This document shows, piece after piece, positions 30,669 through 50,613 of a DNA stretch of 64,000 nt (positions within the stretch are counted from its first letter, which is position 1; the number at the start of each line of letters is the position of its first letter). Where the stretch lies: positions 1 to 64,000 of the forward strand of contig JAJTTP010000023.1 of assembly GCA_023313575.1 (NCBI GenBank), read 5' to 3'. Both the position numbers and the translations under genes were made by a program. The notes under the pieces were generated by a model. It was not told where the DNA came from. It made no database searches and worked only from the letters and a program-made list of their open reading frames with translations. The DNA comes from Eutypella sp. D-1. Taxonomy: Eukaryota; Ascomycota; Sordariomycetes; Xylariales; Diatrypaceae.

Positions 30669-33600
30669 CTATGCAGTCTCCTGGTATTCGGCCGGCGTCA
30701 GGGTCATTTTAGGGTCACCCTTGGGAGCTTGCGTAACCTTGTTCAAGTAATGGATTGATATCTTGGGCTGCACGGTCACCCTGGCGGGCGAGACGTTGAC
30801 CTTGACACCGCGCAAAACGAATGAAAGCTCGCGACAGCGGTTGGCAGGTACGTAACCAGTCAGGACGTCTGGTTGTGGATCAGCCATAGTCCGCGGTACG
30901 AGGCGGATAGTGAGCGAGCTGTACGTCTGGGAGGAGGTCAAGCTGGGGTTGAAACGTAGGTTGGACAACATGGCACCGCCGGACCCGTCATACGTGGCCA
31001 TCAGCGGACCAATGCTTGGATTCGGGTCCGTTGGGGCCGGCCCCTGTCGGATCTCGATTTCCACATACGTCACCTCGAATTCCGGGTAGGCGTTATCCAC
31101 AAGGTTAATACTGAATATGAGGTCCTGGGGCATTGGGTTGCCCTGAATATCTGTATACATAGGGATGGTCCCCGGAGCCGCGGGCGTGCCTGGCTTCTCA
31201 GCGGACCAGAAGAAGAATCGGAAGTCCGGAAAAAGATCAGTCCCGACAGCATCACCGCCAACCTCGCTACTGGCACCCGACATTGCCTTGGGAGCAACAA
31301 AGCGCGCCATGGACTCAGATGACCGTGGTATACGGCTGAGTCTGACATACCGTCCCATGGGGTTATAGCCAACCATCGGCCTATAGTTATGCCGGACGAG
31401 ACGGTCTTCAAATTTCACAAATTCTCCGTCATACCTAGTTTTTGTCTTATGCTGGACAGGGGGAGCCGGTAGCTGGGGTGGCGTGCGCCGGCTGACTGGG
31501 AGCTTTCTCGGGCGGGTCGAGACGGGGGAGTCAAACCCGGTGGGGGCTTTGATGGGCAGCAGATAAGCAGGTGTGTTGAGCTGCCACGCAGCCAGGGCAG
31601 AGCTGGGCACGGTGTCCGAGTAGTACTCGCTGTCCATGAGGGTGTTCAGTCGATCATTATAGTGTGTGACAAAGTTATCCATAAGGAGCGTATGAAGGCG
31701 AATGGGGGACTGTGTGAGGCTATCTTCGACTTCCCATAGATAGGCAACAGGTCTGTCCGTGGATCTGTCCGTGGAAGGTTTCTCTCTCTTCCACACGATT
31801 TCTTCCAGCGGTTTGTCGTAGTCGTCGTCTTGAGGGTTATCCACAGTGTAGGCGCGGCGGAGAGCTACAGTCAACTGCGTAGCCTCTACCTTTGCGCCGA
31901 GGGAGAACGTTTGCTGGTGGGGTGGCTGTGTGAAGGTGAGCTCCGTAAACGTGGACGGAGAGGGCGGCTGGCTGAATAAGCAGAGCATCGTACCCTTGTC
32001 GACCACCTCGTGCCGGAGAAGCACTGGCGGATCGTGCCCTGTAGGCCGGGGTTGCACATTCACAATAAGGTCCGGAAATTTAGCCACGATGTCAGAGCGA
32101 ATGTAACAACCGTATTTTGGAATGGGAGGCGGATAGTCAGAAAGAGGTAAGGGTGACTCGAGGTACCAGTCAATGGCGGATTTGATCGCATCTCGAACTT
32201 TATCCTTGGTTCGATCGACGTGATTGCCGAGGCTGAGTGCTCCGTCCACAAAGCAGTCCATCCATTGGTCATCAATGACGAAGAATCGAAGACTCTCTTC
32301 TGGTAGGTGCGCAGCATCGGGCAGAAGGTAATGGGAAGGGATGTCGTCTAAGAAGAGCCGGTCTAGGACCCAACGCAGAACGACAACCCAATCTGCTGAG
32401 AACGGGGCGTTGAACTCATTATAGGGCTTGTTGGACGGTTCGGAAGGGTTCTCTGGGTCTGGTGTGCTAGCAACTTCTCTCGCGGCCTTTTCCAGACACG
32501 TGTCGATGAGAGCATCGACAATAGGTCCTTGGTAGGCGAAGTTGATGGGTTCGACCGGGTCTCTCATCCACCTCCGCCTGATAGAACCCACTTGCATGAG
32601 AGAATGTCCCTTGGGTAGCTGCGCAAGGGTTTCCATGGAGCCCTTGAGAGCTGCGAGGAGCGCTTGTCTGTTCTTGTACCAGGTATACGTGGTTGCATAC
32701 TGCTCGTGGGATGCATCGGTGGCTCTCTGGAGAATCTGGGTTCGTACCCGGTATAGAGAGGTGGTGAACGCCTGGTCTGCAATAGCCATGGTTCGTCCTA
32801 GTTGCCACGCTGAAGAGTATGATATGTCCATTATCCCCATTCCTCTATCCAGGATGGAAAGGTCGGCCCCGAGCATGGAGGTTTCCGGAAGGATCTTCCG
32901 TGGCTCCTTTTCTACAGGAACAAAAGGGCCTCTCACGAAGCAGGTGGTGGTTTCGCCAGATTGCACCCTATATCGAGAGGCGGCATACCCCTGATCGATG
33001 CGTTCCAGCACCCGCAGACCTACCCACCCGGACTGCCCTATCTTTTGCCAGGTCTCTGCGGGGACAGATGGGCGCAGACGCGACAGTGTCTGTCCTAAAT
33101 GGACAAATTGGTCGCGCACATTTGGGGTTTCCGGGGGGAGGCAGATGTAGCTCCAGCTTGCCAGAGAGGCCAGGGCTACGAATCGAGTAGAGGCGTTGAG
33201 CGGCCATTCCTTGAGCTGCTCGACACCCTCAATGGAGACTAGGTGGGCGAATACAGGGGTGGGTACCGTGACGTCCGGTGGACCTGAGCGGTGAGAAACG
33301 ACTACACCAAAAGCACCCGTATCATCAGTACTTTCAGCCCCAGACACGGCCATGCCCTCCGTGTTCAGAATGCGCTTGTGGGCCAGGAAGCGATGGTGGT
33401 AGACGTATGGTTTAGAAGTAAGAATCACGTTTCCTGCGCTATTGTACTGAGAGAACAAGCCCGTGAAGAGATCTCTCTTGAGGAGAATCATGCCAGTGGA
33501 GGTTGTGTCGGCGCTGACGTCCGCGACGTAGGGGTTAGCGGTAGACAATATGTTGGAGACCTCGTTAATGGGGATGGTCAAGGCGAAATTCGAGTCCTGT

Positions 33601-34121
33601 TTGGCCCCTTCCTGGAGAGATGGGACATTCTTGAATAGACTCTCTTGGCCTGAAAGGGAGCTTTCCGGCAACCGTAGCTCGTCTTCCGTGAAGACAAACA
33701 AGGCCAACCAGGGGGTCCTGTTCCTGTCGAAGTCATCCGGAGGGGTCTTCTCGGCATCCCAGCTCCCTACTCGTTCCCAGGGGAACGTAGGGTCGTTGAA
33801 TATGACGTGAGGCAGTGTTTCAGCGGTGGCACTGAAGCCCTGTGGCGGATAGGTTGTGTGTATGGCCTTCTCGGGCAGGACAAAGCGTGGAGCCTGTACG
33901 TTGAACTCCTGTTTTGTCTCTAGCGTCTGCTGTTGTGCGCTACCTTCGACTGGCTGGCTAACCTCGATGGTGTGCAAGCCCGCCTGCATTCCCGGGATGA
34001 AGAACGAGCGCAGCCGTTCCTGGCCCGGGGTGAGGTTCTCATCAGGCTCATCGCTGAGGTTCCTCTTTCGAGCTGCCCGCTGTGCATGTTTGAATACCAG
34101 ATATCTCGGAGACCTGAACAT
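30669..34121 (-). CDS. Large intronless protein A, 1150 aa, unknown function
   Basis: One uninterrupted frame of 1150 codons starts at ATG 34121; the frame opens further upstream only with a non-ATG codon. There is no signal peptide or membrane segment. The N-terminal third shows LPHVIFND-x3-PWER (residues 103-117) and TPWLALFVFTEDEL (136-149). I associate this pattern, from memory and unchecked, with large bacterial proteins of unknown function. The rest mixes charged loops with beta-prone stretches and has no catalytic motif I can name. A 3.45 kb gene without introns is unusual for a filamentous fungus and would fit bacterial origin. It is divergent from protein B (spacer 1.35 kb) and part of the four-gene group to 50.6 kb. 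It is a real gene by length and composition; function not known. Confidence 0.85.
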   Translation of the reverse strand: MFRSPRYLVFKHAQRAARKRNLSDEPDENLTPGQERLRSFFIPGMQAGLHTIEVSQPVEGSAQQQTLETKQEFNVQAPRFVLPEKAIHTTYPPQGFSATAETLPHVIFNDPTFPWERVGSWDAEKTPPDDFDRNRTPWLALFVFTEDELRLPESSLSGQESLFKNVPSLQEGAKQDSNFALTIPINEVSNILSTANPYVADVSADTTSTGMILLKRDLFTGLFSQYNSAGNVILTSKPYVYHHRFLAHKRILNTEGMAVSGAESTDDTGAFGVVVSHRSGPPDVTVPTPVFAHLVSIEGVEQLKEWPLNASTRFVALASLASWSYICLPPETPNVRDQFVHLGQTLSRLRPSVPAETWQKIGQSGWVGLRVLERIDQGYAASRYRVQSGETTTCFVRGPFVPVEKEPRKILPETSMLGADLSILDRGMGIMDISYSSAWQLGRTMAIADQAFTTSLYRVRTQILQRATDASHEQYATTYTWYKNRQALLAALKGSMETLAQLPKGHSLMQVGSIRRRWMRDPVEPINFAYQGPIVDALIDTCLEKAAREVASTPDPENPSEPSNKPYNEFNAPFSADWVVVLRWVLDRLFLDDIPSHYLLPDAAHLPEESLRFFVIDDQWMDCFVDGALSLGNHVDRTKDKVRDAIKSAIDWYLESPLPLSDYPPPIPKYGCYIRSDIVAKFPDLIVNVQPRPTGHDPPVLLRHEVVDKGTMLCLFSQPPSPSTFTELTFTQPPHQQTFSLGAKVEATQLTVALRRAYTVDNPQDDDYDKPLEEIVWKREKPSTDRSTDRPVAYLWEVEDSLTQSPIRLHTLLMDNFVTHYNDRLNTLMDSEYYSDTVPSSALAAWQLNTPAYLLPIKAPTGFDSPVSTRPRKLPVSRRTPPQLPAPPVQHKTKTRYDGEFVKFEDRLVRHNYRPMVGYNPMGRYVRLSRIPRSSESMARFVAPKAMSGASSEVGGDAVGTDLFPDFRFFFWSAEKPGTPAAPGTIPMYTDIQGNPMPQDLIFSINLVDNAYPEFEVTYVEIEIRQGPAPTDPNPSIGPLMATYDGSGGAMLSNLRFNPSLTSSQTYSSLTIRLVPRTMADPQPDVLTGYVPANRCRELSFVLRGVKVNVSPARVTVQPKISIHYLNKVTQAPKGDPKMTLTPAEYQETA

Positions 34122-35471
34122 GTTCAAGAGCAGGTTATGAAAATGATGAAGTTGGAGAATAGGAAGAGAGTTGAACCTCACGATGGGGTCAGCATAGGAT
34201 TGAGTCCTAAAGGGTATGCGCACAATCGGGTGTGAGATCGAAGGCCGCCGGAGGTCTCCCATACATTGTCGACACACATCACTAGGACCACACCCATAAT
34301 TTTCTTGCAACACCTCACCTCACGGCTCCTTGTGCTGCAAGGCGTCAGTGAGTCCCTCCCTCCAACCCCCACTCCAGTGCTCAGACGATAATATCATGCA
34401 TATTAATCAGCCAGATCGCCCGATGTATTTGCTTGGCCTATTGTGGTCGTCAGCTGTTGTCGTACGCCGAGGTTGCGGGCTGCGACGTTAGAAACCCATA
34501 CGGAATGACTTGCAGACAGAGTGGCGCTGAACATGACACAATGCAACCCGAACTCGCGTTTCCAATAACAGGCTCATGCGTACACTCCTGGAATGCATGT
34601 CATCTGCAGCTGAATACTCAAATAATTGACTCCATAATGGACAAGGGTTTTCCAGAACAAGGTCGCTGCAGATTGTTTCAGCTCTGAAGTTTCCGGACAG
34701 AAGCCAATAGGGACTGAATTCAAATAACGCTACATAGGGTCATGATAAACTGGCTTCGCGGTTTAAACTAATTGCTTTTTATTTATTTGTTTATTATATT
34801 ATTATAATTAAATTAATAATCTTTAATCATTATATATAATGTATTTTAGATATATCCGTTATTTTATTAAAACACTCTCATAATAATCTCCGGTTTTACT
34901 GATAACTGTAACTGTTAGCATATTATTATTTACACATAAAGTAGAAAAGATAAGAAGGAATGTAATAAATAACATTCAAAATACGTGCTCTAGTTATAGT
35001 ATTTCTGTCGTTTAATATTGCCTTTTATAAATACACAGTGACGCATTTCAGCAGCGTCCTAAACCAAACCCCGTTGACTGAGGTCGTATAGAACCTATGA
35101 AGCAGGTTCGCATCAAACCTCCTGCTTCTCATCGGTGTGATACGGGTAGGGTTCACTTGCATAAGAATCCATCTGAATATCATGCAACAAGCCTCACTAT
35201 TCTGCAACCCATTGACCGGCCGGAAGCGTGCCGTTCTTGCCGGTGACGTCGTGCTGAACATTGTAGCAATCCCTTCCATGCCGAGACATCTCCATCCATT
35301 GTAACATCACAGGTATCTTTAGATCTTCTTCAGAGGTAGACATTGAGATGTAACTGCCGATTCAAACCTAAGAACATTAATCACTCATCATCTATGGTCT
35401 GAGGAAAGCTCGCGGTTCTCCTGGTGTGTCTATCCTCGAGCTTGAGAACTTTCAAGCAACGCCCAAGGACC
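34122..35471. promoter_or_regulatory. Divergent spacer between proteins A and B
   Basis: The 1.35 kb spacer should carry promoters for both giant genes. Its middle (about 34755-35000) is markedly AT-rich, with TTTATTTATT and TAATTA runs and weak RIP character, and may be a transposon remnant. No gene is supported; short frames here show no motif. Confidence 0.5.
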
Positions 35472-38400
35472 ATGGCGGAATCCAACATATCCATCCCGAT
35501 GAAGCTAGACGCGTTCGTCTTTAACCAAGACGTCTGCGACGGCGATAAGCTACAAGCGAAGATCGCTCCCATAACGCAGCCCAACTACACCTTCTTGCGA
35601 ATCCAGGGCGATTTGTTGCAGAGTGATCTCCTGGACGCTGTAGATCTGGCAAATGCGGCACCACACCGTCAAAATGCACGGATCACGGACCTAGGAACGG
35701 GAAAGATACGGAAGAACCGCCTGGGTGTATACCTGCACTGGGCCATACCTCGGCCCTACCGTTCCGGTGCGGCCGCAACTCCTGAAACGGAAGCACGCCA
35801 CTCAAACCTGTCTTCTGCCAATGACCCCTCCGCACCGAAGTTCAGGAACCCCCCCACAAGATGGCTGGTATTGCGGAAGATTGACCCCGATAGCATCCAG
35901 CCTGCCGGGGCACCCATTCAATGCTTGGAGGGGTGGGTTGTGGAAAGCGACAGGGTCCGACTACTAGATCAGATCCCCGACAGCGTTGACTTGCAGGTCG
36001 ACGTGTCACCATATATCCTGTCCTCTACGAGCGAAGAGGATCCGGCTCAAATCAGCATAAACAAACAGGCCGAGATCTTTGTGGGCTATAAGGAAAGCGC
36101 CGCGACCTGGAAGGAGTCGGGAGCGGCGAGGACGCGGGTTGATCTTAGTCTCCTAAATAGCTCAAACCAGCTATTCCCCGACTATCAGCCTCACAACAGC
36201 AACGTCTTCTCTGTACTGGACAGATTCACATACTCCGATGAGAATGGATCGCAGCGCACACTTACCGACGCCGTAGCTAGCTACTACGTGCTAGGCTGGC
36301 ATCCGGACAGCAACGATGATCCCTTCACCCTGCAGGGTTACACACGAAGCAGCCGGTTGTCGGAGCTCAACATGACCCTGGATCACATGGAGGAAGTTCA
36401 AGCCTGGCTTGACGCCACGGCCAACACTCGCGTCATCTGCCACGGGGCCATGTATCAGGTGGAGTGGCACGACCGGTGGATCCAGGGCGATAGCCCTGAG
36501 CCGAAGAAACCAGAAAGGGTCCCCGCCGACGTGTTTACCGAGGAACTTGTCACGAAAATGCCCGTCGCAGTAGGCACGACGCCGATGGACACTTTACTGG
36601 CATATATCCATGCGAATCACGAGGATGAACTGGAAAACGACATCTTCCGCATTGCGGCATTGCTTCGGGCGCAGAGCGATAGTGTAACTGATCAACAAGC
36701 AGCCGAAACAGAGGTTCAGAACTACAATTTCACCACTGAGGGAGGGGGGACTCATTACATCATGTCCGTCGACAACGAGCGGCCAGCCCAACCGCCGTCT
36801 GCCGAGGACCAGTCCTACCTGAAGGAGATCAATCAAGCCCAAGCCCTCATCAATGCAGCAGAGCGCGCGCAAACGACAACGCAGTGGGACATCTTTTCTC
36901 TCTGGTGGAAGTATACCACAGACCCGGACAAGGGTACAGGAGGCATTGACGGAGACTACAAGCATAAGGCAGACGGCCTGTGGAGTAAGTACGAGACTCT
37001 TCGCGGCTTGTTGGAGCAACAGCGCAGCCGCCGACAAGCCAGTCTCGGAAAGCTGTCACAGGAGCCAAAGACGGCCACGTTTCCCGAGTTCAACTTGGCA
37101 ACGGACCCCAGCGTCGTGGTCGTCGGTGCTAGGGCTGGCTGGCCGGAGGACTTCCTGCAAAACCTGCTGTGCAGACTGGACTATCAAATCGACGCCTTTC
37201 AGTCCCCAAGCCCTACCGAAGGAGACGATATTGTTAAATGCCTACCCTCGGTCCTGCAGAGAACTGCCCGTGCCCTACTACAAGAATTTCTCGAGAACAC
37301 GCCTGCTATAGCAGGGGAGGAACTGGAAGTTGTTGCGGCAGCCTACAAGACAGTACCGCCATTGTACCATGACCAAGGTGATCCTTCACAAGAGCAAGAC
37401 GAGAATGCGCCGTGGAGAGACCGGTGGGAAAGCACACAGCCATGGTTCCCGCTATTTGTGGAGTGGGAAGTAGAGTTCTTTCATGTCGAGTACGACAAGT
37501 GGACGCTCGATGCGTCGACGTCGTGGGCGGACAAGACAAAGAAATTTCGGCATGCCATCAAGACATCGGACAGACCCTTGTGGGAAGATGGTTCGGTAGC
37601 CCGGGATACGCGCATCCTGGCAGGTCGGTCGCTGATCCTGCCGCAGCCCGCCTTCTCTCTGAAGGCCCAGATCGAACAGCTCTTTAACAGCACATCGCCT
37701 GATATCTTGGACCCAATCCTGCCGCCTGAAGAGCGCGAAAGGCTGCTTGCCGACGTGTCAAAGATGCCCCTTCTCTCCTTGCCATTAAGTGGATTCGTGA
37801 ACCAACTCACGACGACGCTGCAAGGGAATCACCTCAAGCCAAACATTCGAGTTCCTGGAAGTGCGCCGACGCCTATTGTGGAAGCGTACGAGGCGAGTCA
37901 GCCTATCGGCTTAGGCGAGCCTCAGCTCGCGGCTGTTGGAGCCCAGACCGACATGACGCCATTTGGAAAGCTGGTGCCGCTGCCCAACAACGGCTGCGCA
38001 GCCTTCAAGCCTGCGACCCATGGCCAGTTCCGCTTCACGAAGCTTAACATCGTGGACAAGTTTGGACAGTGCGCTCCAGCGATTGACCAGCGGCCGAGCC
38101 GCACCGGACCGCCGCCGCTCTATCCATGCTTGAGCGACTATGTAGTGCCGCAGTCGTTCGGGGCCGACAACACCCCCAATGTAGCCGTCAAGCCCGAAAA
38201 GCTGGAATCCTGCGAGTTCGCACAGGTGCCGCCCCAGATCAATCAGGCGAGCCGCCTCAATTGTCAGTTCGTGACGCCCGACGAAGACGCCTCCCCGGCT
38301 AAAGGCGGGGCGTACTGGAGACCGGTTCGCGAGTGGGACAATCCGATCTGGGGCTGGATCGTGGTGAACTATGTCAATAACGGCATCCAGTTCTTCCTTC

Positions 38401-39602
38401 CAGACGGAACCTTTTACCGCGAGGCTCGAGTCGCTTCTCCCGACAACCCCCGCCCTGTCGCGGCCGGCAAGCGCTGGTTACCCTTTGGTCAATCCGAGGA
38501 GGGGCCCGTCCCTCCCGGTGCGCGTCAGATTGACCTTCTGATCCGTCAGTTCACCAACCCGGATGGCGGGCAGAAGTATCTCGAAGGCTTCATTGCCATG
38601 ATCACAGGGGCCGTGGACAGTATCAAGAGCTCGCCTCCGGCATATGGTCAATTTGTCAACGCGCTGGTCGGCAAGCCCCTCGCCCTTGTGAACGTAGGCT
38701 ACTCCTTGGAGCTTGCCACCGATGCCAAGGTCAACCAGTCACAGGAAGATAGTCAAGACGGCAAGTCCACGAAGTTCCAGCTGTTGCCAGCCAAGCCGCC
38801 CTCTAGCAACGAGGTGTATAGCTTTCAATTGAAACTAGGCGATCACGATCGCTTGGACGATAGCCTGGTGGGCTACTTCCGCGCACATGAAGATCCGTGG
38901 GGTCGCGACCAGCCTGCGGGGAACGAGCTCAAACTGGAAACGCTTTATACGACCTACTATGCTGATAACCCACACTTCGCCGCCATTGACGGGGCCAATT
39001 TCCCACAGCTCCAAGCGTTTTACACGAATCCCCTGGAGTTTGCGGCATCCGAGGAGCCCGGCCCCGCCTTCACGCGGGTCTATAACTCGAAGATGAACCC
39101 GACCGTGTTCGGATGTATTGTCGACCCATTCCTGGCGCTGCACGCGTATACTGGGGGCGGCGTCGCGCCGGTGCAGGCGCTCAAGCTCCCCGAATGGACG
39201 TGGCAAACCGCACTGCAGCGTATGACAGCCTTTTTCCATTTCGGGCCGCTGATGGTGACCGGGGACGTGCCGGGATTTGACGATAGGTACGTGCTGCCGG
39301 GTGGTAACTACGCGGCGGACCTCGGTCGCCTGACGGCCCCCGGCGCAGCCCTGCCCCTGCCGTCGCTGAAGACGGCTGACTGGCGCTGGCTGCAAGGCTA
39401 TATGGCCCAGGGTAGTGACGGTGAAGGCAACAGCGAGGGCGATGATGAAGACCCTCCTCAGAAGTACATGGCGTTGGCTTTGGGGAAATTGGACGCGACG
39501 CCTAGGTATGAACGCGGCCCGTACACGGCCATCGAGGGGTATCTGCAGATGGCCAGGCCAATCGAGGGGTCCAATAATGCTCCTCATGATGGCTCTCAGT
39601 GA
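35472..39602 (+). CDS. Large intronless protein B, 1376 aa, unknown function
   Basis: One frame of 1376 codons starts at ATG 35472, which has a good fungal start context (GACCATGG). No signal peptide or membrane span is seen. Near the N-terminus it has KLDAFVFNQDVCDGD, APITQPNYTFLR, then GVYLHWAIPRPYR (about residue 88) and PPTRWLVLRK (about 132). A second recognisable piece is IWGWIVVNYVNNGIQFFLPDG (about 958). The LHWA-x-P plus RWLVLR pair recalls, from memory and unchecked, a family of bacterial proteins of about 1000-1300 aa with no known function. There are no catalytic motifs I can name. Over 4 kb without an intron and GC-rich codons suggest possible transfer from bacteria. It is divergent from A and convergent with lectin-like C. 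Confidence 0.85.
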   Translation: MAESNISIPMKLDAFVFNQDVCDGDKLQAKIAPITQPNYTFLRIQGDLLQSDLLDAVDLANAAPHRQNARITDLGTGKIRKNRLGVYLHWAIPRPYRSGAAATPETEARHSNLSSANDPSAPKFRNPPTRWLVLRKIDPDSIQPAGAPIQCLEGWVVESDRVRLLDQIPDSVDLQVDVSPYILSSTSEEDPAQISINKQAEIFVGYKESAATWKESGAARTRVDLSLLNSSNQLFPDYQPHNSNVFSVLDRFTYSDENGSQRTLTDAVASYYVLGWHPDSNDDPFTLQGYTRSSRLSELNMTLDHMEEVQAWLDATANTRVICHGAMYQVEWHDRWIQGDSPEPKKPERVPADVFTEELVTKMPVAVGTTPMDTLLAYIHANHEDELENDIFRIAALLRAQSDSVTDQQAAETEVQNYNFTTEGGGTHYIMSVDNERPAQPPSAEDQSYLKEINQAQALINAAERAQTTTQWDIFSLWWKYTTDPDKGTGGIDGDYKHKADGLWSKYETLRGLLEQQRSRRQASLGKLSQEPKTATFPEFNLATDPSVVVVGARAGWPEDFLQNLLCRLDYQIDAFQSPSPTEGDDIVKCLPSVLQRTARALLQEFLENTPAIAGEELEVVAAAYKTVPPLYHDQGDPSQEQDENAPWRDRWESTQPWFPLFVEWEVEFFHVEYDKWTLDASTSWADKTKKFRHAIKTSDRPLWEDGSVARDTRILAGRSLILPQPAFSLKAQIEQLFNSTSPDILDPILPPEERERLLADVSKMPLLSLPLSGFVNQLTTTLQGNHLKPNIRVPGSAPTPIVEAYEASQPIGLGEPQLAAVGAQTDMTPFGKLVPLPNNGCAAFKPATHGQFRFTKLNIVDKFGQCAPAIDQRPSRTGPPPLYPCLSDYVVPQSFGADNTPNVAVKPEKLESCEFAQVPPQINQASRLNCQFVTPDEDASPAKGGAYWRPVREWDNPIWGWIVVNYVNNGIQFFLPDGTFYREARVASPDNPRPVAAGKRWLPFGQSEEGPVPPGARQIDLLIRQFTNPDGGQKYLEGFIAMITGAVDSIKSSPPAYGQFVNALVGKPLALVNVGYSLELATDAKVNQSQEDSQDGKSTKFQLLPAKPPSSNEVYSFQLKLGDHDRLDDSLVGYFRAHEDPWGRDQPAGNELKLETLYTTYYADNPHFAAIDGANFPQLQAFYTNPLEFAASEEPGPAFTRVYNSKMNPTVFGCIVDPFLALHAYTGGGVAPVQALKLPEWTWQTALQRMTAFFHFGPLMVTGDVPGFDDRYVLPGGNYAADLGRLTAPGAALPLPSLKTADWRWLQGYMAQGSDGEGNSEGDDEDPPQKYMALALGKLDATPRYERGPYTAIEGYLQMARPIEGSNNAPHDGSQ

Positions 39603-40305
39603 TGATTAGCTTCTTTTAGTTCTCGTCTTCAGTCAGACATGAGTTTCCTGATGATTTCGCGTCGCCTGTTCGTGATAAACCGCAGAGGGAGTAGTGAAGC
39701 TATCCCATTCCAAGAGCTGCTGCATATGAAGTAAAAGAAAGGCCGATTGACTGCCTATGTAACCGCACCTGGATGTAATACGCGAAGCGTTACATCAGAT
39801 CTCCAACTGGTTCTCCGATGTAGTGATGATTCTAAGTAGTCCTGCCAAAGCACTAGTATAACGGGCACAGACACTGCGGGGGCGGGGAATAGTATAGTAG
39901 ATACTCTCACTAAGCTGGCATTGCAATACTGGTGTTAAAACGGCCAACCGCAAGTTAGTAGTCCAGTCTCTGAGCAATGATGATGATGAAGCTGTTCCGA
40001 GGGACGTTGGTATTAGGTAGTGGGGGGGAACTGGGGCTGTCAGTGAAGCTAGACGCCCTAACAACCAAAGGTTACCGTGCCTATTTATGCACTACATAGT
40101 TATGGGCATATTAAATAACCCACTAAGCGGTGCGATATGGATCGCTCATTCGCCCATCAGGGAAAACGGCTTCATGTGCCTACCGTTTTAGATACCACAA
40201 GATAGTAAGGTGCAAGCCCTGGTTTACACTAGAGCATTCAATGATTCAATCTTTAATGAGCGACTTTTAGCACCCCCATTCCCCAGACTCTTCGCTCCTT
40301 GGTAC
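39603..40305. other. Convergent 3' region between B and C
   Basis: It should hold the 3' ends of both transcripts. No gene, repeat or RNA is supported. Confidence 0.5.
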
Positions 40306-41459
40306 TCAGTACACTTGGTGTTGACCCCCAACCACCTTGACACCATCATTTTCGGGGTCCGCTTCCTCGAAGGACACCGAATCCACACTGACAGGGCGCT
40401 TGAAATCATCCAGGTAGGAAACGTAGGCGTTCATGTCCGGCCTTCGAAAATAGACATGGTTACCCCCCCTATTAGTGTCGGCCAGGGCTGCCAGGCCAGA
40501 TGTCGTGGCCACGTCTCCCGCGTCGTAGATCTCCTGTTGCGTGCCCCAGCTACCGGCTGACTTGGTCCCCGTATACACCACGCGGGTCAGCTTGTTGATG
40601 TTGTCCACGTAGTACACGTAGATCTCAATCGTATTATCGGTGAAGGCCACGATTGTGGCAGCCAAAGGAGTGCCCTTGAGGGAGTTGTTGGTGCCCCTGA
40701 TAGACTGCTCTGAAGTCATGGGCGAAACTATTAGTGCCGGCTAAACGACATGATAGAGCATCAAGGAGTGTCGACAAAACAGGATGGCTTACTATGACCT
40801 AAATCGGACCATGAGTAGTAGATGAAGGGGTCCGTTCCATCATTGTTGCCTTGGAACAGGATCAACCGCGTCTTACTGCTTGGCTCGTAGATGGCAGCCA
40901 AGTTCGACGCGGGGTCAGGTCCTAGGTCTGTAAATACCTTCTTGGTCCCCTGGTTGTTCATGTTGAAGGTGAACTCCGTGATACGTGGCTTGGAGTCACC
41001 CGCGTCCTGCAAGAAGTAGACATAGTCGTGGTCAACGTTGTTGCTGGCCGCTGCGATGGCGTCGTACTTGCCCGGGTCGGCTCGCTTGTCCGCGACGGGA
41101 TCAATGGCCGTGTAGGTCGGCGTTAGACGGGAGACAGTCCTAAACTGCCCTTCCGAGTCTTCGTACGTGGCGATGCCATAGACAGCAAGCTATACGATGG
41201 AGTTAGAAGCTGGCTCAAGTCGAAGGACAGGATAACGTACCGTTCGGTTGTGGACAGCGGAGGCAAGTGACGTGGATACACGAATGGCACCCAGCGAAGC
41301 GCCGCCGTCACGGTACCGACTCCAGGAGTTGCCCTCGAGCATGTGAATGTCGACTCCTAGCTGCTTCTTCTTAGTGACGTACCATAGCAGCACATTCTGG
41401 TTGACCGTGGAGGTCGGGCTCACTGGGAGCGGGTTCAGAGTTGCAGCCACGCCGGACAT
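40306..41459 (-). CDS. Putative beta-propeller lectin-like protein C, 3 exons
   Basis: Exons 41459-41241, 41189-40793 and 40727-40306 give 345 aa. The product is built of repeated beta-strand units with a conserved rhythm (VLLWYVTKKKQLGVDIHML, DYVYFLQDAGDSKPRITEF, IYYSWSD, IEIYVYYVDNINKLTRVVY, HVYFRRPDMNAYVSYL). Spacing is about 50-60 residues, which is what a six-bladed propeller such as the fungal fucose-binding lectins would show. Length is close to that family (about 310-350 aa) and there is no signal peptide, as in cytosolic fungal lectins. I cannot identify the sugar-binding Arg/Glu/Trp set with certainty, so lectin function is an inference from architecture. All introns keep phase, which supports a functional gene. 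Its place between B and D suggests, but does not prove, membership of the same locus. Confidence 0.55.
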
Positions 41460-43444
41460 GTTGTACTTGAAGCTCAGGCGACTAAAGCGAAAACTAGTGC
41501 AGATGCCGTGGAAGGTGTGCTGCGGAGTCTAACGACATCGCATTGCGCTCCAGGACCCGAAGCCAAATAAATACGCCTATCGTCAAGGCGGATTGGAACG
41601 GCATTCAACAAGAGAGAGACTCTCCTCGTCTCTGGCACCCGGTTTCCCCGCTCGCGATGATGTCAACCTGATGTCCATTAGAACCACTCCCAGCCGTATG
41701 ATTACATTACCTGAAGGGTCAAAGCGTTTCTCCAACGCATGGGCTCTGCCTGGGACATCCGCAGAGATCATCGGATGTTCAATCACACAGCTGCGACGAG
41801 ACGGATAAGGTGATATCTTGATGCTACTGAAGCTGCACCGGGACGAGCTGAACAGACTCGTCATGCATAACACTGCGGGGACTGTTCTTGACATATGCAA
41901 CACGATAATGTCTCCTGCCGTTGCCGACTCAATATCACACTGGTGGGAAGTGGGATAGTGGGGGGTTGCAACAGTTTCCGCGGGGATATCGCTGTCGCGG
42001 CCACCCTGTGTTATGGGAGCTGAAGGACGTGGCGGCAAGGAAGAGTTTGCGACAGAGATGCTACAGTGAGACCGGGTTGCCTCAGCTACAGTAGGGGCAA
42101 AGATAACGCCAATTTCTTTTTTTTTAAGACGGCCATTTTGCCACCAAAACGCGTATATTTCTATAACAAATACCTTCACCAAAGTAGTAGGTACGACGAT
42201 GATGCGAGGTAGGTTAGATAAGGAATTGATTAAATAAAATATAGATGTTTTTATAAAGCCATATATTTAATGTGTTAATAACTATAAGCGTTTATAACGT
42301 AGGTAATCTTAGTGGTAACCCCGCTGTAAATTAATAACGTATTAACTATATTTTAGCGGTATCCAGCTATTACCGGTTTATAAACATTTTAAGGCATAAA
42401 TGCGTTACGTGGTTTAATTTTTATACGCTATATTAAAAAAAGCGTAAGCTTTTCTCCCCCGGTTGGCTTATGTTTTTTATATTAAATATTTACGGTAAGT
42501 ATATAATCTGTATACGTATTAATTTAACGCAGTAATAAATTAGTTTAAAAAAAGATTACTTAAAATTAAAAATAATTAAAATATATTAAACCATAAATAA
42601 CTATTAAATATTTAATATATAATAAAAAGGCGGGTAAGTATTTTTCGAACCGGTAGCAATACGTTTATACTTTTAAATTTATTATTATAAAGGTAAAGGT
42701 TTTAAGTAGGCCTTATTAGGCTTATAAAACTATTTATCTTTAAAAAAAGAATTAATAATTCGTGCAAAATTCCAGCGACGGCATATAAAAAGGAATAGCA
42801 GCCGAGGATGGCTAAAATCCTTGCCATTTTATTTTATTTACCTAGTAAACCAGACCCGTCTTCGTGGTATACACATAAAACGTACCTTATATTTATTAAT
42901 TTTAAATACGATTAATAACACAACTTTCACATAAAATAAAACGTGCAGTTACTTTAAATATCTAACCTAAAGTCGTATTCCACTGGTTCGGTGATTGACG
43001 AACGACCAACCATCAATGCTATGTCTGTATCGTTCAGAGAACGCATAGATGGCCCGGGGAAACGGCAGGGTGATGTACGCACCGTCTTTGCTGCATATAC
43101 CGGTGAACATCGCCAAGCGCCCTCTTCTTTGATCAATCGAAGTTACCCGCTTGGAGATATATTGGACGGGGACGATCGGAATAACACCCTGAGGGTTACA
43201 TGTCCCATACCAGATGATACGAGATGTACATTGTGCGGGATATGGACCTGACGCTGTATTCTCTCCAAGGGCTCTCGATTTCAAGGTGTGGGCTTGACGA
43301 GATTGACCTCGAGGGTCGCGTATAGTCCATGCTCTCCCCATTCGCAGCCTCCTGAATCAACTCTACCCACTAGGTACTCGACATTCCCCCAACTTTATTC
43401 TGGAGACATATTGTGGCAACTCTCTGGGGACGAGGACCGCCATC
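41460..43444. other. Divergent spacer between C and D, with a RIP block
   Basis: The ends should carry the promoters of C and D. A RIP-mutated AT-rich block occupies the middle. A 199-codon minus-strand frame (41583-42182) and a 124-codon one (42967-43341) have no recognisable features and are not called as genes. Confidence 0.5.
42190..42965. repeat. RIP-degraded AT-rich block between C and D
   Basis: TpA-rich and poor in CpA and TpG, with CpG retained, like the blocks at 1-1250 and 8125-9145. The source element cannot be identified. It shows that a repeat once sat inside the A-D gene group without destroying the genes. Confidence 0.7.
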
Positions 43445-46400
43445 ATGTCGTCTGGCATTTACGTCACGTCTTATCATATCAACGTCAAGGTCGGCGATGC
43501 CGCTATCCACCTAGTTATCAAGGGAAGCAGCGGTAATAAGGAAGTTCTGAGAGCTGTCCTCATCGATGGCGGATCGTCGAAACGTAATGATATCCTGGGA
43601 AAGGACAATGCTCTCAAGCGCATGGTTGATAGGCTCAGCAAGCTGTATGGAACTGTGCTGACCTTTGACACTATCGTCATCAGCCACTGGGACGAAGACC
43701 ATTATGGAGGGCTTGTGGATCTACTACGTGCGGACATGGTGAAAGCCGTGGAAAGCAATGAACAGCCCTCCAAGGTCCTGACATATCTGAAGTGGAAAAG
43801 GGAGAACAATGAAGAGGTCCCAGAGACCTACCTGTACTGCCCTAATGAGGTGTCTTCTGGTGCGAGCGTAAATGGCCTACCCCGGTTCTTTCGGCGAGGC
43901 CCCGACCCAACAACCGGGATTTTCGTCCAAGTCTGTACAGACAAGGATCCCAAGAAAGACACAGGTTCCTGGAAATCCTTTGCTCGCCTGAGATCGGCCG
44001 AGAAAGCCAGTGACTTATATACGGTTTTGGGAACGAACTTCTTCGCAAACACGGAGCTAACCAACAACCCTGGCAAAGTCACGCCGGCCGAGTTGATGGT
44101 CAAGAATCCACCACCGTCAGGTTGGCCGGGGATGTACTGTATAGGAGTCAAAAACAAGACGTTCGAGATGAGCAAGCCCCCCAGGATCATTCCAGAGGGT
44201 GTCACGAAAACAAACCAATGGTCTATAACCTGCGTCATCCTCTGGCCCAGCGCTGGCGGCGGCCCGCCCAAGTGTTCACACTACTCGGCAGGAGACGCCG
44301 ACGAGAAAAGAGAGGCAGAGTATATGGAATGGCTCCAGGTTGGTGGTATTACCAGTATGACCAACATGAAGCTTAGCCACCATGGCTCACGCTCATCCAC
44401 GCCACTCACCTCCAACCAATTGTTCCCGGTGAACATCATCATATCCAACCCTACGGGGTACTATTTTCATCCAGGTTAGTAGCATACCCCACACCGAAAA
44501 CAGTCAGGCTCAAGCCGTTTACACATTGCAGGCTGGGAAACGATGTTCTACTTCTGCCTTTTCACGCGATACTCCGTTGACCGGAATGCCAGCATGCCTG
44601 CCCGCGTTTTCGCTACCAAATACCCCTTTTACTTATGTGTGGACAACGCGGGCGAGTACATCAATCTCGGCAAGGACGACAAGCTCCTCAAGACCCATGC
44701 CTTCGACAATGCGGCCAGTGGATCCGCCTTCCGAGAGTATCTCACCAAGGCGTACAACGAAATGCAAGGATATAACGCCAATTGGAAGGCGGTCGTCAGC
44801 GAGCTGGATGAGTATAAGAAAGTAGGGAAGGATCCAAAGGAGCAGAGGAAAGTCATCATGGATTTACTCAAGGCGCGGTGGGATATGTTCTGTTGGCCAG
44901 GGGCCGATACCTACTCCAACGCGGACTTTCCCACGGGAAAACCAAACGCCCAGAAGACAACCACCCTGGCCGTCCCCGAGTGCCTCGTTGTCAGGTCAGC
45001 GAATGATTCCACCGATGGGCGAATCTCTTACATGGAGTATAACTCATCCGCTATTAAATCGTACATTAGGCCAACAACAACCACAGCGCAAAACAGCAAC
45101 GCGGTGCTCGGGAGGAAGCGCCCCATTAATGCCTTGAACACTGGAAACACGATTCCCGGATGGATGACCGTCCCCAAGAAGATGAAGAGGGGCAAGCAGG
45201 AGTCGCACCCCCCTATAGAGGGAGTCCTGGCGCAGGACACGGATGACATCAGCGTCGATAGGGAGCTCGCCAACCAGCCCGTGACCGAGAAAGGGGCTTT
45301 CTACACTCAGGAGGGCACGAACATCAACGAGATGGACCATCCGGACTGGCCCGTAGACGTCTCAATAAGCGAACAGCTACCCACAAAGGCCCCAGGCACG
45401 GCGCAGTTTTCGACCAGCTGGACGATCCAGCCAAGTTTGCCTGGCGACGACGACACCGATAACTGGTACATCTATTCCAGCAACATTCCCCAAACTTCCG
45501 TTGAAGCCGTCACCCAGCGTTATACTATTCTCTCCCCCGAGGATCCTTGGGATGGCTGGATCGCCTCCTTGCACTGCGCCGTCATCAGTCTCACCGCGGA
45601 CCCGGGAAATGATCCAGAAGTCCAATCGACACCCCTGAGTGGAGATGACGAGCTTGCCTGCTGGTTTCAGGATACCCTAGCCGCGACCGATGTGGTGATG
45701 ATCAAGTACACCGGATCCCAGGCAGCCAGTGTCGGTGGCTTTGCCGTATCGACGTCGCTGGTGGGCTCGGGCGGCACGCAACCGGAGCCTCCCATTGCCC
45801 TGTTGTTTAGCTCTGAGCATAACGCCTTATCAAATGCTTTTGCCGGGAGCCCACTCCCCCCCATGGGACTTCGCGATGGATCGACGTCGCTCGTGATGGC
45901 GCTGGATACCAGACGTCGAAAGCCGGAGACTGTGTCAATGGCCACGCTGGCTACATTCGTGGGCCTGGATGATTTATTTGAGAGCCCGTTCCTCGCACTT
46001 CTCAAGGATTTGCGCTACGTAATACCCGCCGAGGACAATCCCGGCACCGGGCACAGAAATGCCATTTGGTTCGTTCCACAGCAGTCTTACGCTACGACCA
46101 CTAGGCTACAGCTCGATCTCTCGTCGGATGATCTTGGGACCCTACAGACATTCCTGGATGTACTACATGGACGCGTCACGGGGGCATACGTGATTGCCAG
46201 GAGGAGGAACTTCTGGACCTCCGGCGAGACTACGGTGGCCTTCAACACCGAGGGCGAGCTAGTGCTCGTGTCGGAAATAGAAGTCGACAAGCTCGAATTC
46301 AATGCGGTAATGGAGCTACGGAAAGATCTCCTCGAAGTATCACTTATTCTTAAGACGAGGACGGGTCCCGTTCTTGACACCGTCCTTTCCTGGCTCAAGA

Positions 46401-49400
46401 GCAGCATCATTGGCGGTAAAGATGACGACCCCTTTCCTTTCAGGGAGTGGTTACGGAAGACAGCCGAGACCCTTTCGTTCCCCGAGTTCGACTTTCGGCG
46501 TGTCGTCATCTCATACACACCTCGGAGCCAGGACAGTACTTCCATGCAATTCTCCTGTCTTTCACTAGACATGGAAATGCAAGTCAAGGCTCGAAACCAG
46601 CGCGTCCTCACGTTGGTCACTTTTGTCTATTCGGCGGACGGAGGACCCGGAACCTCACTCACGGCGGATCTATGGGTCGGTAAGTGCTCATAAGAATCTA
46701 TTGAAAAGCTAGAACTGACCTCTGATACCAATAAGCTCCTACCTATGACGTCCACAATCCGGCCCTGCGCGTGCTTCCAGACTTTGAGAACTACGCCTGG
46801 TTCGAGCCACTAGGGATAACGACGCGGTTCGAGGAATGGCCAAAGTACTTGGACCTTGCAAGCCTCGCTGGTCTCGGGTCTGAAGACTCCCCGCCCGGGA
46901 TCTTCCCGACCATTCTCACGATGGCCCGGCTCCATGTCAACAAAGACTCGGTCGCGTTCAGCGGCGTCTTACAAGCTAAGCCCATGACAGGTGGGACTGG
47001 TCCGCCTATATTCTCGATCGACCAGGTTGATCTCTTCGCGGAGTACGCGTTCGGCTCGCATGATGGATCTGGCATCGCTATTGAACTTGGTGTTAGGGCA
47101 CTGATCCAGCCTCCGCCCGACTCGGATATCGACCCGGCAGAGATCAAAGCAGAGTTCCTGTATCCCGGGTCATCCAAGCCGTGGTCCCTCAAAGGATCTG
47201 TGGATAATCTTCTCCCAGCGCACTTCTACCAGTTCTTCCCGGACGATATGCGCGCCGCCGCCGCCGCCCTCCTCGATGGCATTGTAGTCAGGTCGTTAGA
47301 TATCGATTACTCCTACGCGAAAGGGGAAGCATCCATGTTCCAAGTCTCGGGGGTCCTAGGAATCGGAGCCCTAGACTTTGCCCTAACCTACAGCAACTAC
47401 GGCAGCGCGAAGCCTTGGGACTTCTACGCCGGAGTCGCTTTTAACTCTGAGGCTGACCAGCAGCACTCGTCCTTCCTGGCAATGCTAGCCAATCTCGTTG
47501 ATTTGGATAGCACCATTATCCCTAGCTTCCTCGGCAACATCGACGTCTCGATGAATGACCCCAGCGACGAAATCGGCCTCAGGCTAGTATCGGATCCCGA
47601 GAGTCAGTCGATGGTCTTCACCCTATGGGCGCGGATTGGCTCTCTTCGAATCCAATACATCCAATGCATTCATGATGTCCAGTCTACAATGTCTGCCACG
47701 GGAACGGCGTCGTATGCGAAGGCAAAGGCATCAGTGAAGCGTGTTCTGTTGACCTCCGTGGACAAGATTATGGAAGTCGACGTCCCCCTACTAGGAAACA
47801 TCACCCAGCCGTTTGACGAAGCACTCGCCATGTGGGTACAGTCGAAGGGCTCCGAGGGTCTCACGCTTGATGAGCTCGCCCTTGTGAACAGTGTCATCAC
47901 GGCCGATCCTCTCAATCAGAAGCCGCTGCCGTATAAGAGCGTGAAGAAGGATCCTGGAGGCCGAGATGTCGTGCTCAGAAATGGAGTCCACCTCATGCTC
48001 GTCCTAAAAAACGCAAATGGCGCGACCAGCGTTGCCCTCGATTACGTGTTTGGGAACAAGCAATCGGCCATGAACACCGGTGCCCTAAAATCCTCCTCGG
48101 ACGCTGATGGAGAGTCTGGCATGGTGGAATATCCCAAGACGGCCAATGCACTGTCGGTGCGCAACCTCGGCCTTAAGTATGCCGACAACATCCTCTCCAT
48201 CAAGGTTGACGGGGAGGTGAAACTGGGTCCGATCAGATTCGCCGTGCAGGGCTTTGCCATTCATTTGGAGTTCTCGCCTGGAGGGAACTCCAGTCTGTTC
48301 CACTTGCCCAGGCCCTCTGTCTCGCTCGAGGGGCTCTCCGCCACTTTCGACTCGCCGCCTATCAAGCTCGAGGGGATGCTGCTACACGCCGAAGACCCGA
48401 CGCTGAACATGTATGCCGGGGCTCTAGTGGCCGGCTACGTCCCCTGGCTATTCTCTGCCGCCGGCTGTTACGGGGAAGTGAAAGGCCTCAAGGGGTACAA
48501 GACGTTTTTCGTCTACGCCCGGCTTAACGGACCTCTGATCACGCTCGGGTTTGCCACTATCTCCGGCGTCGTCGCGGGGTTCGGGTACAACAGCACCATG
48601 CGGTTCCCGACCGCCGCCAGCGTGGAAAAATACCCTCTCATACAGGTCCCCACGCCTCCCGATGCGACCCCGCAGGAAGCTCTCTTGGGGCTGATAGGAG
48701 AATGGTTTAGTCCCAAGGAGGGGTCCTTCTGGATAGCTGCGGGTTTAAACGTCATCGCTTTCAAGATGGTAGAGGTTTCGGCCGTTATCGCCGTCGAGTG
48801 GGACCCCAACATCAAGATAGGCGTTTTCGCCCTCGGTGACGCAAGCATACCGCCCAAGGTAGGCGGCGGGTCCGGCTCTCGCTTCGCCCATGTCCAGTTG
48901 GGGATGACGGCAATTATAGACGTTGCCGCCGGAACCATGAAGCTCGACGGCCAGTTGACTCCTGCGTCTTACATATTGGACCCAAACTGCCACTTGACAG
49001 GTGGATTCGCGATGTACACCTGGTTTGGCGATGCGGCGCCGGAGCTGAAAGGAGACTGGGTATTCACCATCGGCGGCTACCATCGCCAGTTCAAGCTCCG
49101 TCCGCAGTACCCTACCCCGCCGCGCCTGGGTATCAGCTGGAAATTCGACAGCGCCATCAGCATCCGCGGCGAGGCCTATTTCGCCATCACCCCGAAGGTG
49201 TGCATGGGCGGGGGAAGGCTAGACGTGTCACTCAGTCTCGGCCCGCTCCAGGCGTACTATAATGCATTCATCGACTTCCTCATCAACTTCAGCCCCTTTT
49301 ATTTCATCGCGGATGGTGGCATTAGCGTCGGCGTCAAGTTCACCCTGGACCTCTGGCTCGTCACCATCCACATCAGTGTCGACCTGTCCGCCTCGCTGCA

Positions 49401-50613
49401 TATTGAAGGTCCCCCGATCCATGGCACAGTCCATGTCAACTTCTGGGTTTTCGGGTTCGATATCAACTTTGGAAGCCGCCGTCCGGGCGTCTCCGAGCTC
49501 ACTCTAGACGAGTTCATCACCTTGGCCTGTGAGTCAGGTGCGACCATGCAATCCGTGTTCCACACGATCGGCGTCCGTACCCCAGTGGGGAACTATCCGA
49601 AGCCGTACGAAGCGAAGGCGCAGGAGGGCAGCTTATTGTCTGACGGGGACCCCCGCAAGCCGCATGTCTTGGTGGTGCAGTCTGGCCTGATCCCGGAAAA
49701 CAAGACAACCTCGGAACCCAGCGGCGGGTTGTGGCAGGTCCGCGCAGCCAACTTTTCATTTGCCGTGTCGTGTAAGGTCCCTGTCGAAAAGGCCACGATT
49801 GTCACCGGCCGTCCTGAAAAATGGGAAGCAGAGAATGACCCGGAACCTCACGTCGTAGAAGGTACCGGTAACCCGATCAACGCTCGCCCAATGTGCGACA
49901 CCAAGAAATTGTCCTCGCAGGTAACCATAACCATTACCCCGGAGCCCCCGAAGCCGAGCCTCCTCACCGTGGGTGAGAAACTATATGAATCCGTGCCCGT
50001 GTGGAATAACAACGTTGGTATCGTCAAGAATCTGCCCGCAGGCCTATGGGGGAAGTGTGAGTAGCAGGCCAAGACGTTCCTGTTCGAATGATAGTCCGAA
50101 GCTAATCCCAACCCCTTCACAGATGACCCGGCGAAAGACCCCACCAAGCACGCTAACAATCCCGACTACCTCAACGGCAACTCAGCAGACTGCACGGTCT
50201 CGCTACTCTGTGGCGTAACCATCACGGTTCCCAAGCCGCTCGTCTCGGAGCTCGACACGACCTGGCCTTTTGACTTCAAGAAGTACATGGTGCTCGAGAT
50301 TGAGTCCGACTTCCACTTCCCCCGGATTATCCCCGAGGAGCCTGTCTTCCAACCGGCTCCCCTGGACGAGGCCGATAGGCCGAAACAGTGGGACGCCGTG
50401 CGTGACGCGTGGAATGCACCGGAATTGGGCGAGGGTGCGTCAATGCGGGCTAGCGAGCTTTGGCAGGAGGTGGGACTATCTGACTTGGGCTGGGACCAGA
50501 ACAAGATCGATTCAGAGGCAGGCCATGAGTTCGTTGGACGCGTGCCGGCTGCGGTGGTGAAGGATCTAGAAGACTACTACCTGTGGGCGCCTTTCCTGAC
50601 TAATAAGCCGTAA
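43445..50613 (+). CDS. Giant protein D: metallo-beta-lactamase fold plus DUF6603-like region, 4 exons
   Basis: Exons 43445-44474, 44532-46679, 46736-50056 and 50123-50613 join in frame to 2329 aa. Residues 1-345 look like a ComEC/Rec2-type metallo-beta-lactamase fold: AVLIDGGSS (about 37-45), ISHWDEDHYGGL (about 79-90, the HxDxDH metal motif), SAGDAD (about 281) and KLSHHGSRSS (about 309-318). A linker of mixed charge follows, then long beta-rich segments. At about residues 1550-1980 the pattern EGSFWIAAGL...GEAYFAITPKVCMGGGRLD...GPPIHGTVHVNFWVFGFDINFG resembles DUF6603, a domain of unknown function I know from bacterial and some fungal proteins. No signal peptide is seen. The enzyme part could hydrolyse nucleic acid, nucleotides or another phosphoester/ester; the target is unknown. 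All splice sites are standard and preserve phase, so it is one gene. It is the largest gene of the A-D group. Confidence 0.8.

What the first reader, a model, noticed from the sequence alone, without database searches (positions are those of the whole stretch)
30669..50613. Four-gene locus of giant unknown proteins, possibly one undescribed system
Within 20 kb lie two very large intronless genes (A, 1150 aa; B, 1376 aa) in divergent orientation, a lectin-like propeller (C) and a 2329-aa metallo-beta-lactamase/DUF6603-like fusion (D), with no ordinary metabolic gene between them. A, B and D each carry motifs I associate, from memory and unverified, with bacterial families of unknown function. 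Such co-location suggests they work together, for example as a large cytosolic assembly with a hydrolase and a recognition lectin, and may have been acquired as a block from bacteria. Seen: the genes, their sizes, lack of introns in A and B, and the motifs. Inferred: common function and transfer.
Basis: partly seen in the sequence, partly recalled or inferred. Interest (0 to 1): 0.85.

Follow-up and report, generated by a model that had tools for sequence, protein, structure and literature searches.

The report
Undescribed giant-protein system in fungi, bacteria
Three very large neighbouring genes in this fungus turn out to be one conserved gene set that bacteria also carry as an operon, next to exchangeable enzyme and binding genes, which suggests an undescribed enzyme-carrying protein machine shared by microbes and fungi.

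Summary
Of 55 prokaryote loci encoding A homologues (nine bacterial phyla, one archaeal MAG), 50 have DUF6603 and 45 have B on the same strand nearby. In 292 sampled cyanobacterial genomes DUF6603 is in 5, A in those same 5, B in 4 of them. Six other fungal records keep A, B and D within four consecutive gene numbers. The MBL fused to DUF6603 in fungi is a separate gene directly upstream of DUF6603 in some bacteria; other loci have nuclease-type, lipase or unassigned proteins there. A second variable gene carries LamG, tail-collar or kelch domains in part of the loci. I read it as a carrier (DUF6603, A, B) for an exchangeable hydrolase plus a recognition protein; this is inferred. DUF6603 models as a long amphipathic beta-meander; B shows no clear known fold. 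Fungal copies form one clade in three unrooted trees; transfer from bacteria is likely, not proven. Gene C as a lectin is weak. Searches for DUF6603 identifiers found no paper.

The parts
30669..34121 (-). Gene A, 1150 aa, no intron; its first about 750 aa are homologous to the bacterial A family, with a C-terminal extension that bacterial A proteins lack
   Evidence: ORF; homologues; alignment with bacterial A; prokaryote loci; residues 801-1150 have no match at E 0.1 in the 3374 prokaryote ORFs
35472..39602 (+). Gene B, 1376 aa, no intron; homologous to the bacterial B family; the model of a bacterial B has a long alpha-helical hairpin between beta-rich parts
   Evidence: ORF; homologues; fungal-only B profile hits 45 of 55 prokaryote A loci; model
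40306..41459 (-). Gene C, modelled with three exons (41459-41241, 41189-40793, 40709-40306), 339 aa, lectin-like at best; membership in the system unproven
43445..50613 (+). Gene D, 2329 aa, exons 43445-44474, 44532-46679, 46736-50056, 50123-50613; N-terminal MBL + long middle part + DUF6603
43445..44474 (+). MBL domain of D with the motifs SHWDEDH and LSHHGS; related to a separate gene lying directly upstream of DUF6603 in some bacteria
46736..50056 (+). Exon 3 of D: DUF6603 region (Pfam core 48136-49530) and its flanks, a predicted long amphipathic antiparallel beta-meander

Best explanation
A, B and the DUF6603 protein are the three conserved core subunits of one undescribed system. I propose that they assemble into a large soluble particle made without an evident signal peptide. 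DUF6603, a very long amphipathic beta-meander, would be the shell or membrane-active part; B, with its helical hairpin, and A would be the scaffold that joins it to a recognition protein. A hydrolase is loaded on the particle: in this fungus the MBL fused to the N-terminus of D; in bacteria an MBL, an endonuclease/phosphatase-type enzyme or a lipase from the gene upstream. The recognition protein (LamG, tail-collar, kelch or similar) directs it to a surface, and the hydrolase acts on the target. In the fungus the most likely use is as a stored cytosolic defence or antagonism protein against grazers or competitors, in place of a secreted one. Shown: conserved linkage, joint presence and absence, MBL fusion against neighbouring gene, variable genes in the enzyme and binding slots, amphipathic beta architecture (predicted). 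Inferred: assembly, delivery, target and toxicity. That the three belong to one system I hold at about 0.95; the confidence below is for the carrier mechanism.
For: One system: DUF6603 near A in 50 of 55 loci and a B homologue in 45 of 55, found with fungal queries only; 33 of 33 DUF6603-like proteins of these loci that I scanned match PF20248. Cyanobacterial sample of 292 genomes: DUF6603 in 5, A in the same 5, B in 4 of them. Actinobacterial sample of 346: DUF6603 in 11, A in 5, all within the 11. A- and B-tree distances over 14 shared loci correlate at r 0.91, 0 of 1000 permutations as high. Six fungal locus-tag blocks. Payload: a profile of the fungal MBL hits 7 of 3374 prokaryote ORFs; six of the seven lie directly upstream of DUF6603. 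Of 41 upstream genes, 34 scanned: Lactamase_B 8, Lipase_3 2, Exo_endo_phos 2 at E 0.01; three giant DUF6603 proteins carry PF07819. The MBL resembles ComEC, LmuA, RT-associated MBL and Avs1a enzymes. Recognition: 31 genes scanned gave LamG 6, Collar 5, Gp10_C 4, kelch 3. One gene downstream of B in L027 has a Hint domain. Strand alternation in the DUF6603 model 2.82 against 1.56 shuffled, 0 of 500.
Against: No experiment, expression or interaction data. No immunity gene was looked for systematically or noticed. About half of the proteins scanned in each of the two variable slots match no Pfam family. Some occupants of the enzyme slot do not look like payloads: a DsbD-type membrane protein and a DUF4135 protein. 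The M91, trypsin and S33 matches, one of the MBL matches (L027) and one EEP match (L023) lie below their cut-offs. B has no match at E 0.001 in PDB or viral models, and the A fold was not predicted. The DUF6603 model matches porins, LptD, ushers and apoB100 only as meanders, with rmsd mostly 11-14 A (one row, FhuA, 6.0 A over 215 residues) and 13 A or more, so it does not say whether it makes a barrel, a lipid-binding sheet or a shell. Absence of signal peptides was judged by eye. The genes I call recognition slot are not all homologous to each other. L045 has A without DUF6603 and L098 DUF6603 without a recognised A.
Confidence: 0.42

Rival explanations
1. Intracellular immunity: A/B/DUF6603 form a sensor or scaffold that switches on an exchangeable effector (MBL nuclease, lipase, EEP nuclease) inside the cell during phage or other attack, as in modular anti-phage systems.
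For: The MBL resembles effectors of Lamassu (LmuA), DRT (RT-associated MBL) and Avs1. Rare, patchy distribution over many phyla. No signal peptides seen by eye.
Against: The window's A, B and DUF6603 and one bacterial A and B match no PADLOC model, and no NTPase or known sensor domain was found in A, B or D. The second variable slot carries surface-binding and tail-fibre-type domains in part of the loci.
Confidence: 0.18
2. Cell-surface or extracellular matrix assembly: a structural coat or adhesive sheath, with hydrolases as processing enzymes.
For: LamG, kelch, collar and S74 domains; Foldseek's best rows for D are an S-layer complex and an usher; a Hint domain that could allow self-processing.
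Against: No signal peptide or anchor evident by eye; bacterial phyla with different envelopes, an archaeal MAG and fungi share it; hydrolase families vary between loci.
Confidence: 0.15
3. Lipid handling: DUF6603 is an apolipoprotein-like or bridge-like amphipathic sheet that binds or moves lipids, with A and B as partners and lipases or phosphodiesterases acting on the cargo.
Against: The rmsd is far too large for a shared fold; the MBL and EEP enzymes are nuclease-like; recognition domains are unexplained.
Confidence: 0.12
4. Chance neighbourhood: four unrelated giant genes in one fungal region.
For: None beyond the lack of experiments; C may be a true chance neighbour.
Against: Linkage repeated across nine bacterial phyla, one archaeal MAG and several fungal genera.
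Confidence: 0.01

Closest known systems
DUF6603 (Pfam PF20248)
   Same: D belongs to it by sequence (502.8 bits, cut-off 27).
   Different: The family has no function given, and no paper in the held library names DUF6603, PF20248 or IPR046538 (the last identifier is recalled). Its constant partners A and B and the variable slots are, as far as these searches reach, undescribed.
Tc toxin complexes, including the fungal Tc complex reported in Metarhizium (PMC13236867; outline, abstract and 12 passages seen)
   Same: Very large subunits, an enzyme carried by a large assembly, presence in bacteria and fungi.
   Different: A and B match no Pfam family and D matches only MBL and DUF6603; no Tc domain in 37 B homologues. 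Likeness is of kind only.
Polymorphic toxins and contractile-injection or tailocin cargo systems
   Same: Exchangeable hydrolase next to a constant carrier; tail-collar, S74 and gp10 domains in some recognition genes; a Hint domain gene in one locus.
   Different: No sheath, tube, Rhs or VgrG family among the 34 + 31 slot genes scanned; no immunity gene identified. One Paenibacillus plasmid has a baseplate-V gene about 9 kb upstream, which may be chance.
MBL effectors of anti-phage systems (Avs1a, LmuA, RT-associated MBL)
   Same: Sequence likeness of the MBL domain over roughly its first 100 residues.
   Different: A, B and DUF6603 match no PADLOC model.
Cytosolic fungal defence proteins against nematodes (PMC6238071 and others; search listing and abstract starts only)
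   Same: Cytoplasmic proteins as a defence of fungi against predation is an established idea.
   Different: Those are, from my own knowledge, small single proteins such as lectins; lectin identity of C here is unproven.

Membership tests
DUF6603 (PF20248) | Match over the curated score | tested here: met
   502.8 bits, cut-off 27, E 1.3e-150
Metallo-beta-lactamase superfamily (PF00753) | Match over the curated score | tested here: met
   31.1 bits, cut-off 22.7
Metallo-beta-lactamase superfamily (PF00753) | Metal-binding HxHxDH or HxDxDH motif | tested here: met
   SHWDEDH in D; a [ST]HxDxDH motif in 24 of 38 fungal D homologues; 11 of the 38 have no MBL match at all (many are shorter proteins). 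The role of the motif is recalled knowledge.
The A-B-DUF6603 system as defined here | A, B and DUF6603 encoded together | tested here: met
   Window; prokaryote loci; fungal locus-tag blocks
The A-B-DUF6603 system as defined here | Physical assembly of the three proteins | not testable with these tools
   Needs co-purification or structure
Tc toxin complex | TcA, TcB or TcC (Rhs-type) domains by sequence | tested here: not met
   A and B: 0 Pfam families at E 0.1; D: only MBL and DUF6603; 37 B homologues scanned, no Tc family among those listed
Polymorphic toxin system | Exchangeable toxin-type enzyme domain beside a constant carrier | tested here: inconclusive
   Enzyme slot varies but toxicity is untested and about half of the slot proteins match nothing
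Polymorphic toxin system | Cognate immunity gene | not tested
   No immunity family was searched for; none was noticed
Known anti-phage defence systems (PADLOC) | Core proteins match a PADLOC model | tested here: not met
   A, B and DUF6603 of the window and A and B of L002: 0 families at E 0.01; only the MBLs of the window and of L031 match effector models, the upstream protein of L027 matches none
Fungal fucose-specific lectin (PF07938), gene C | Match over the curated score | tested here: not met
   13.6 bits against 25.3 for one exon; joined model no match at 0.02
Outer-membrane beta-barrel | Same fold as a known barrel | tested here: inconclusive

The most novel reading that the evidence does not exclude
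A categorically new macromolecular delivery machine: DUF6603, A and B form a self-contained particle, unrelated to Tc, Rhs or phage-tail systems, that carries interchangeable hydrolases on interchangeable receptor-binding proteins, is spread across bacteria and archaea, and was taken up once as a block by an ancestor of Pezizomycotina, where the enzyme became fused to the carrier.
Probability: 0.35. Interest if true: 0.95.

Novelty: categorically new. Interest (0 to 1): 0.8.

Why it matters
Three giant protein families without any known function are shown to be parts of one system that spans bacteria, an archaeon (one MAG) and fungi. That turns a 'DUF' and two unnamed families into a testable machine with predicted enzyme and binding partners. 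If the carrier reading is right it would be a further class of protein-delivery particle, and a case of a multi-gene bacterial system adopted by filamentous fungi. Even if the mechanism is wrong, the linkage lets anyone pick the right partners to co-express, delete and image.

Tried and rejected

Viral origin: a scan of IMG/VR with the A alignment confirmed no relative, and INPHARED phages gave no match to one bacterial A. Plasmids hold A in 8 of 72,556 records, among them Streptomyces clavuligerus and Paenibacillus plasmids. B and DUF6603 were not searched there.

Does the C-terminal part of the window's A, the middle of D or its C-terminus match the prokaryote ORFs? No hit at E 0.1. Does the c3 recognition profile match any of the fetched A, B and D homologues? 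No hit.

DUF6603 without A: in Actinobacteria 6 of 11 genomes lacked an A match at first. Of 18 regions fetched around DUF6603 genes (17 from the two phylum samples, one a second copy in Azospirillum), 13 have A by profile, one of them only at E 3e-3, and 2 more by BLAST against such a divergent A'; in 2 the contig ends beside the gene; L098 has no recognised A. So a divergent subfamily D-A'-B' exists. B was missing in G114, whose DUF6603 frame is short (536 aa).

Rows dropped before counts: of 41 genes upstream of DUF6603 I scanned 34, leaving out seven (a near-copy, cases where the neighbour was B, c3 or a DUF6603 piece, and short ones); of 26 c3 members I scanned 16, with 15 other genes after B.

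Literature: DUF6603, PF20248 and IPR046538 gave 0 papers, four locus tags 0, the term set polymorphic toxin, metallo-beta-lactamase, lipase and LamG 0; this is one open-access library only. A search on gene transfer in Pezizomycotina was seen as a listing with abstract starts; two of its titles (PMC11273514, PMC11898892) question claims of such transfers, which counsels caution here too.
Full report
Observation. The window lies on contig C16 of a 48,474,653-base assembly in 72 contigs. A and B are uninterrupted ORFs of 1150 and 1376 codons on opposite strands. D needs three introns and gives exactly 2329 aa. Pfam finds Lactamase_B and DUF6603 in D and nothing in A or B; NCBIfam finds only sub-cut-off ComEC, Avs1a and similar MBL likeness in D. 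C can be modelled as a 339-aa gene but does not reach the lectin family's cut-off. A, B and DUF6603 have one match each in the whole assembly, all in this 20 kb.

Homologues. A has 89 database hits and B 410, of which 120 are listed. The listed eukaryotic hits that bear names are, by my knowledge of the genera, filamentous ascomycetes, except one record filed under the tree Carpinus fangiana, whose single contig carries A, B and D within four gene numbers and is most simply fungal contamination. The bottom of the A list holds bacterial proteins (Azospirillum, Streptomyces), which align with fungal A over about 750 aa.

Bacterial operon. A scan of the prokaryote species genomes (84,980 by the tool's description) with that alignment gave 55 loci. 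With the single window sequence of D's third exon as query, 50 of 55 loci contain a DUF6603 ORF; with a profile of fungal B alone, 45 of 55 contain B, in both cases on A's strand. With bacterial profiles the counts are 51 and 47; those profiles were built from many of the same loci, so the first counts are the independent ones. Three of the four loci without DUF6603 begin inside or within 200 bases of A, so the gene would lie beyond the contig end; L045 is an exception. The common order is DUF6603-A-B; in cyanobacterial loci B comes first. The loci in the tree belong to Pseudomonadota, Bacillota, Actinomycetota, Cyanobacteriota, Bacteroidota, Acidobacteriota, Nitrospirota, Chlorobiota and Chloroflexota, plus a Methanoculleus MAG.

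Sample started from DUF6603. The first scan starts from A, so I also started from DUF6603. In 292 genomes of the phylum of a Leptolyngbya DUF6603 is in 5, A in the same 5 and B in 4 of these 5. If A and DUF6603 were independent, the chance of the same five would be about 6e-11 by my own arithmetic, ignoring shared ancestry. In 346 genomes of the phylum of a Streptomyces DUF6603 is in 11 and A in 5, all inside the 11. Larger regions around DUF6603 genes (18 regions) showed A beside it in 13 by profile and 2 more by BLAST against a divergent A', with a matching B' in several, two contig ends, and L098 as an exception. A- and B-tree distances over 14 shared loci correlate at 0.91, with 0 of 1000 permutations as high.

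Fungal linkage. Locus tags put A, B and D in one block: Venustampulla BP5553_08823 (A), 08822 (B), 08820 (D); the Carpinus record FH972_023769, 023770, 023772; Xylographa MMC27_003896, 003894, 003893; Orbilia TWF694_005837, 005835, 005834; Bathelium M1822_009969, 009967, 009966; Stylonectria G7046_g948, g950, g951. Of the 38 D hits that I class as fungal (P0210-P0247, some unnamed), 17 share a contig length with a listed A or B hit (8 with both); this is my own reading of the three tables and a lower bound, as only 120 of 410 B hits were listed and assemblies differ.

The enzyme slot. The MBL of D has the motif SHWDEDH and a later LSHHGS. A profile of fungal MBL domains hits 7 of 3374 prokaryote ORFs at E 0.01. 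The three best (L031, L038, L008; E 2e-15 to 3e-12) and three more (L044, L042, L025) lie directly upstream of DUF6603; the seventh, in L041, is in an ORF that overlaps the 5' part of its DUF6603 ORF. So a gene that is separate in bacteria is fused to DUF6603 in the fungus. Of 41 genes upstream of DUF6603 I scanned 34: 8 match Lactamase_B, 2 Lipase_3, 2 Exo_endo_phos at E 0.01, and singles match DUF4135, DsbD, an M91-type effector and trypsin; about half match nothing, and not all of these matches pass their cut-offs. Three giant DUF6603 proteins of over 3000 aa carry a PF07819 domain themselves, with an AHSTAG motif near residues 1017-1142.

The recognition slot. A gene after B, or between B and DUF6603 in cyanobacteria, is similar in 25 of 55 loci (family c3). 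On the whole it has a conserved middle and variable ends. Of 31 genes scanned (16 of 26 c3 members and 15 other genes after B), 6 match LamG, 5 phage tail collar, 4 Gp10_C and 3 kelch; most of the other genes show no homology to c3, so the slot is defined by place as much as by descent. In L027, which groups with Lachnospiraceae in the tree, a gene downstream of B has a Hint domain.

Structure. The AlphaFold2 model of D's third exon (mean pLDDT 78.7, pTM 0.60) is well predicted over the DUF6603 part (ten-residue blocks mostly 80-97) and is a succession of long antiparallel strands. Foldseek and VIA rows are S-layer protein, LptD, ushers, porins and apoB100 with large rmsd: a shared meander, not a shared fold. 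Hydrophobic alternation within strands is 2.82 against 1.56 in shuffles, 0 of 500 as high. The model of a bacterial B (pLDDT 81.3, pTM 0.83) has two long helices at 360-401 and 412-449 among beta-rich parts and no clear relative. A was not modelled.

Trees. In DUF6603 (77 rows), A (46) and B (44) the fungal rows are one side of a branch with SH-aLRT 100; these are quick trees with several long branches. The DUF6603 fungal stem is long (1.25), and prokaryote phyla are mixed, with the archaeal copy in a clade of five that includes Azospirillum. The simplest account is one acquisition by an ancestor of these fungi from a prokaryote, followed by MBL fusion. The root, donor and direction are not established, and two recent titles question transfer claims for this fungal group (listing only).

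Mechanism. What is shown is a conserved three-gene core with two variable neighbours. That pattern, large constant parts, exchangeable hydrolase, exchangeable binder, is what carrier or delivery systems look like, and I give that reading 0.42, against immunity 0.18, matrix 0.15 and lipid handling 0.12, the rest being open. A Tc complex was reported in Metarhizium in 2026, with longer fly survival after a knockout (PMC13236867; outline, abstract and 12 passages seen), so a toxin complex in a fungus has a precedent; the present proteins have no Tc domains by Pfam.

Novelty. DUF6603, PF20248 and IPR046538 return no paper in the held open-access library; subscription papers and preprints are not covered. 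I file it as categorically new because none of the three core families has a described function in the libraries searched or a solved relative found by sequence, with the caution that the working principle may later prove to be of a known kind.

Noticed in passing
window 42250-42980: AT-rich island between C and D; parts of it match 15 further places on seven other contigs of the same genome at 74-88% identity, so it is a dispersed repeat, probably decayed, next to the cluster.
   Followed up: partly
window 1-2000 and 8001-10000: GC drops to 0.30-0.31 against about 0.5 in most of the window, possibly the same kind of decayed repeat.
   Followed up: no
window 19944-25703: A 1919-codon open frame on the plus strand with strong AT skew; not examined.
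   Followed up: no
   Followed up: partly
L116 (Paenibacillus polymyxa plasmid p-YT9A): The operon sits about 9 kb downstream of a phage baseplate assembly protein V gene and about 8 kb from a GH-E nuclease gene.
   Followed up: no
L009:3214-5070: The gene upstream of DUF6603 matches DUF4135 (E 1.4e-21), an unusual occupant of the enzyme slot.
   Followed up: no
window 34050-34121 (start of A): The fungal A proteins aligned share a basic N-terminal stretch (clearest in four of five rows) that the bacterial A proteins there lack; a targeting or binding signal is possible.
   Followed up: no
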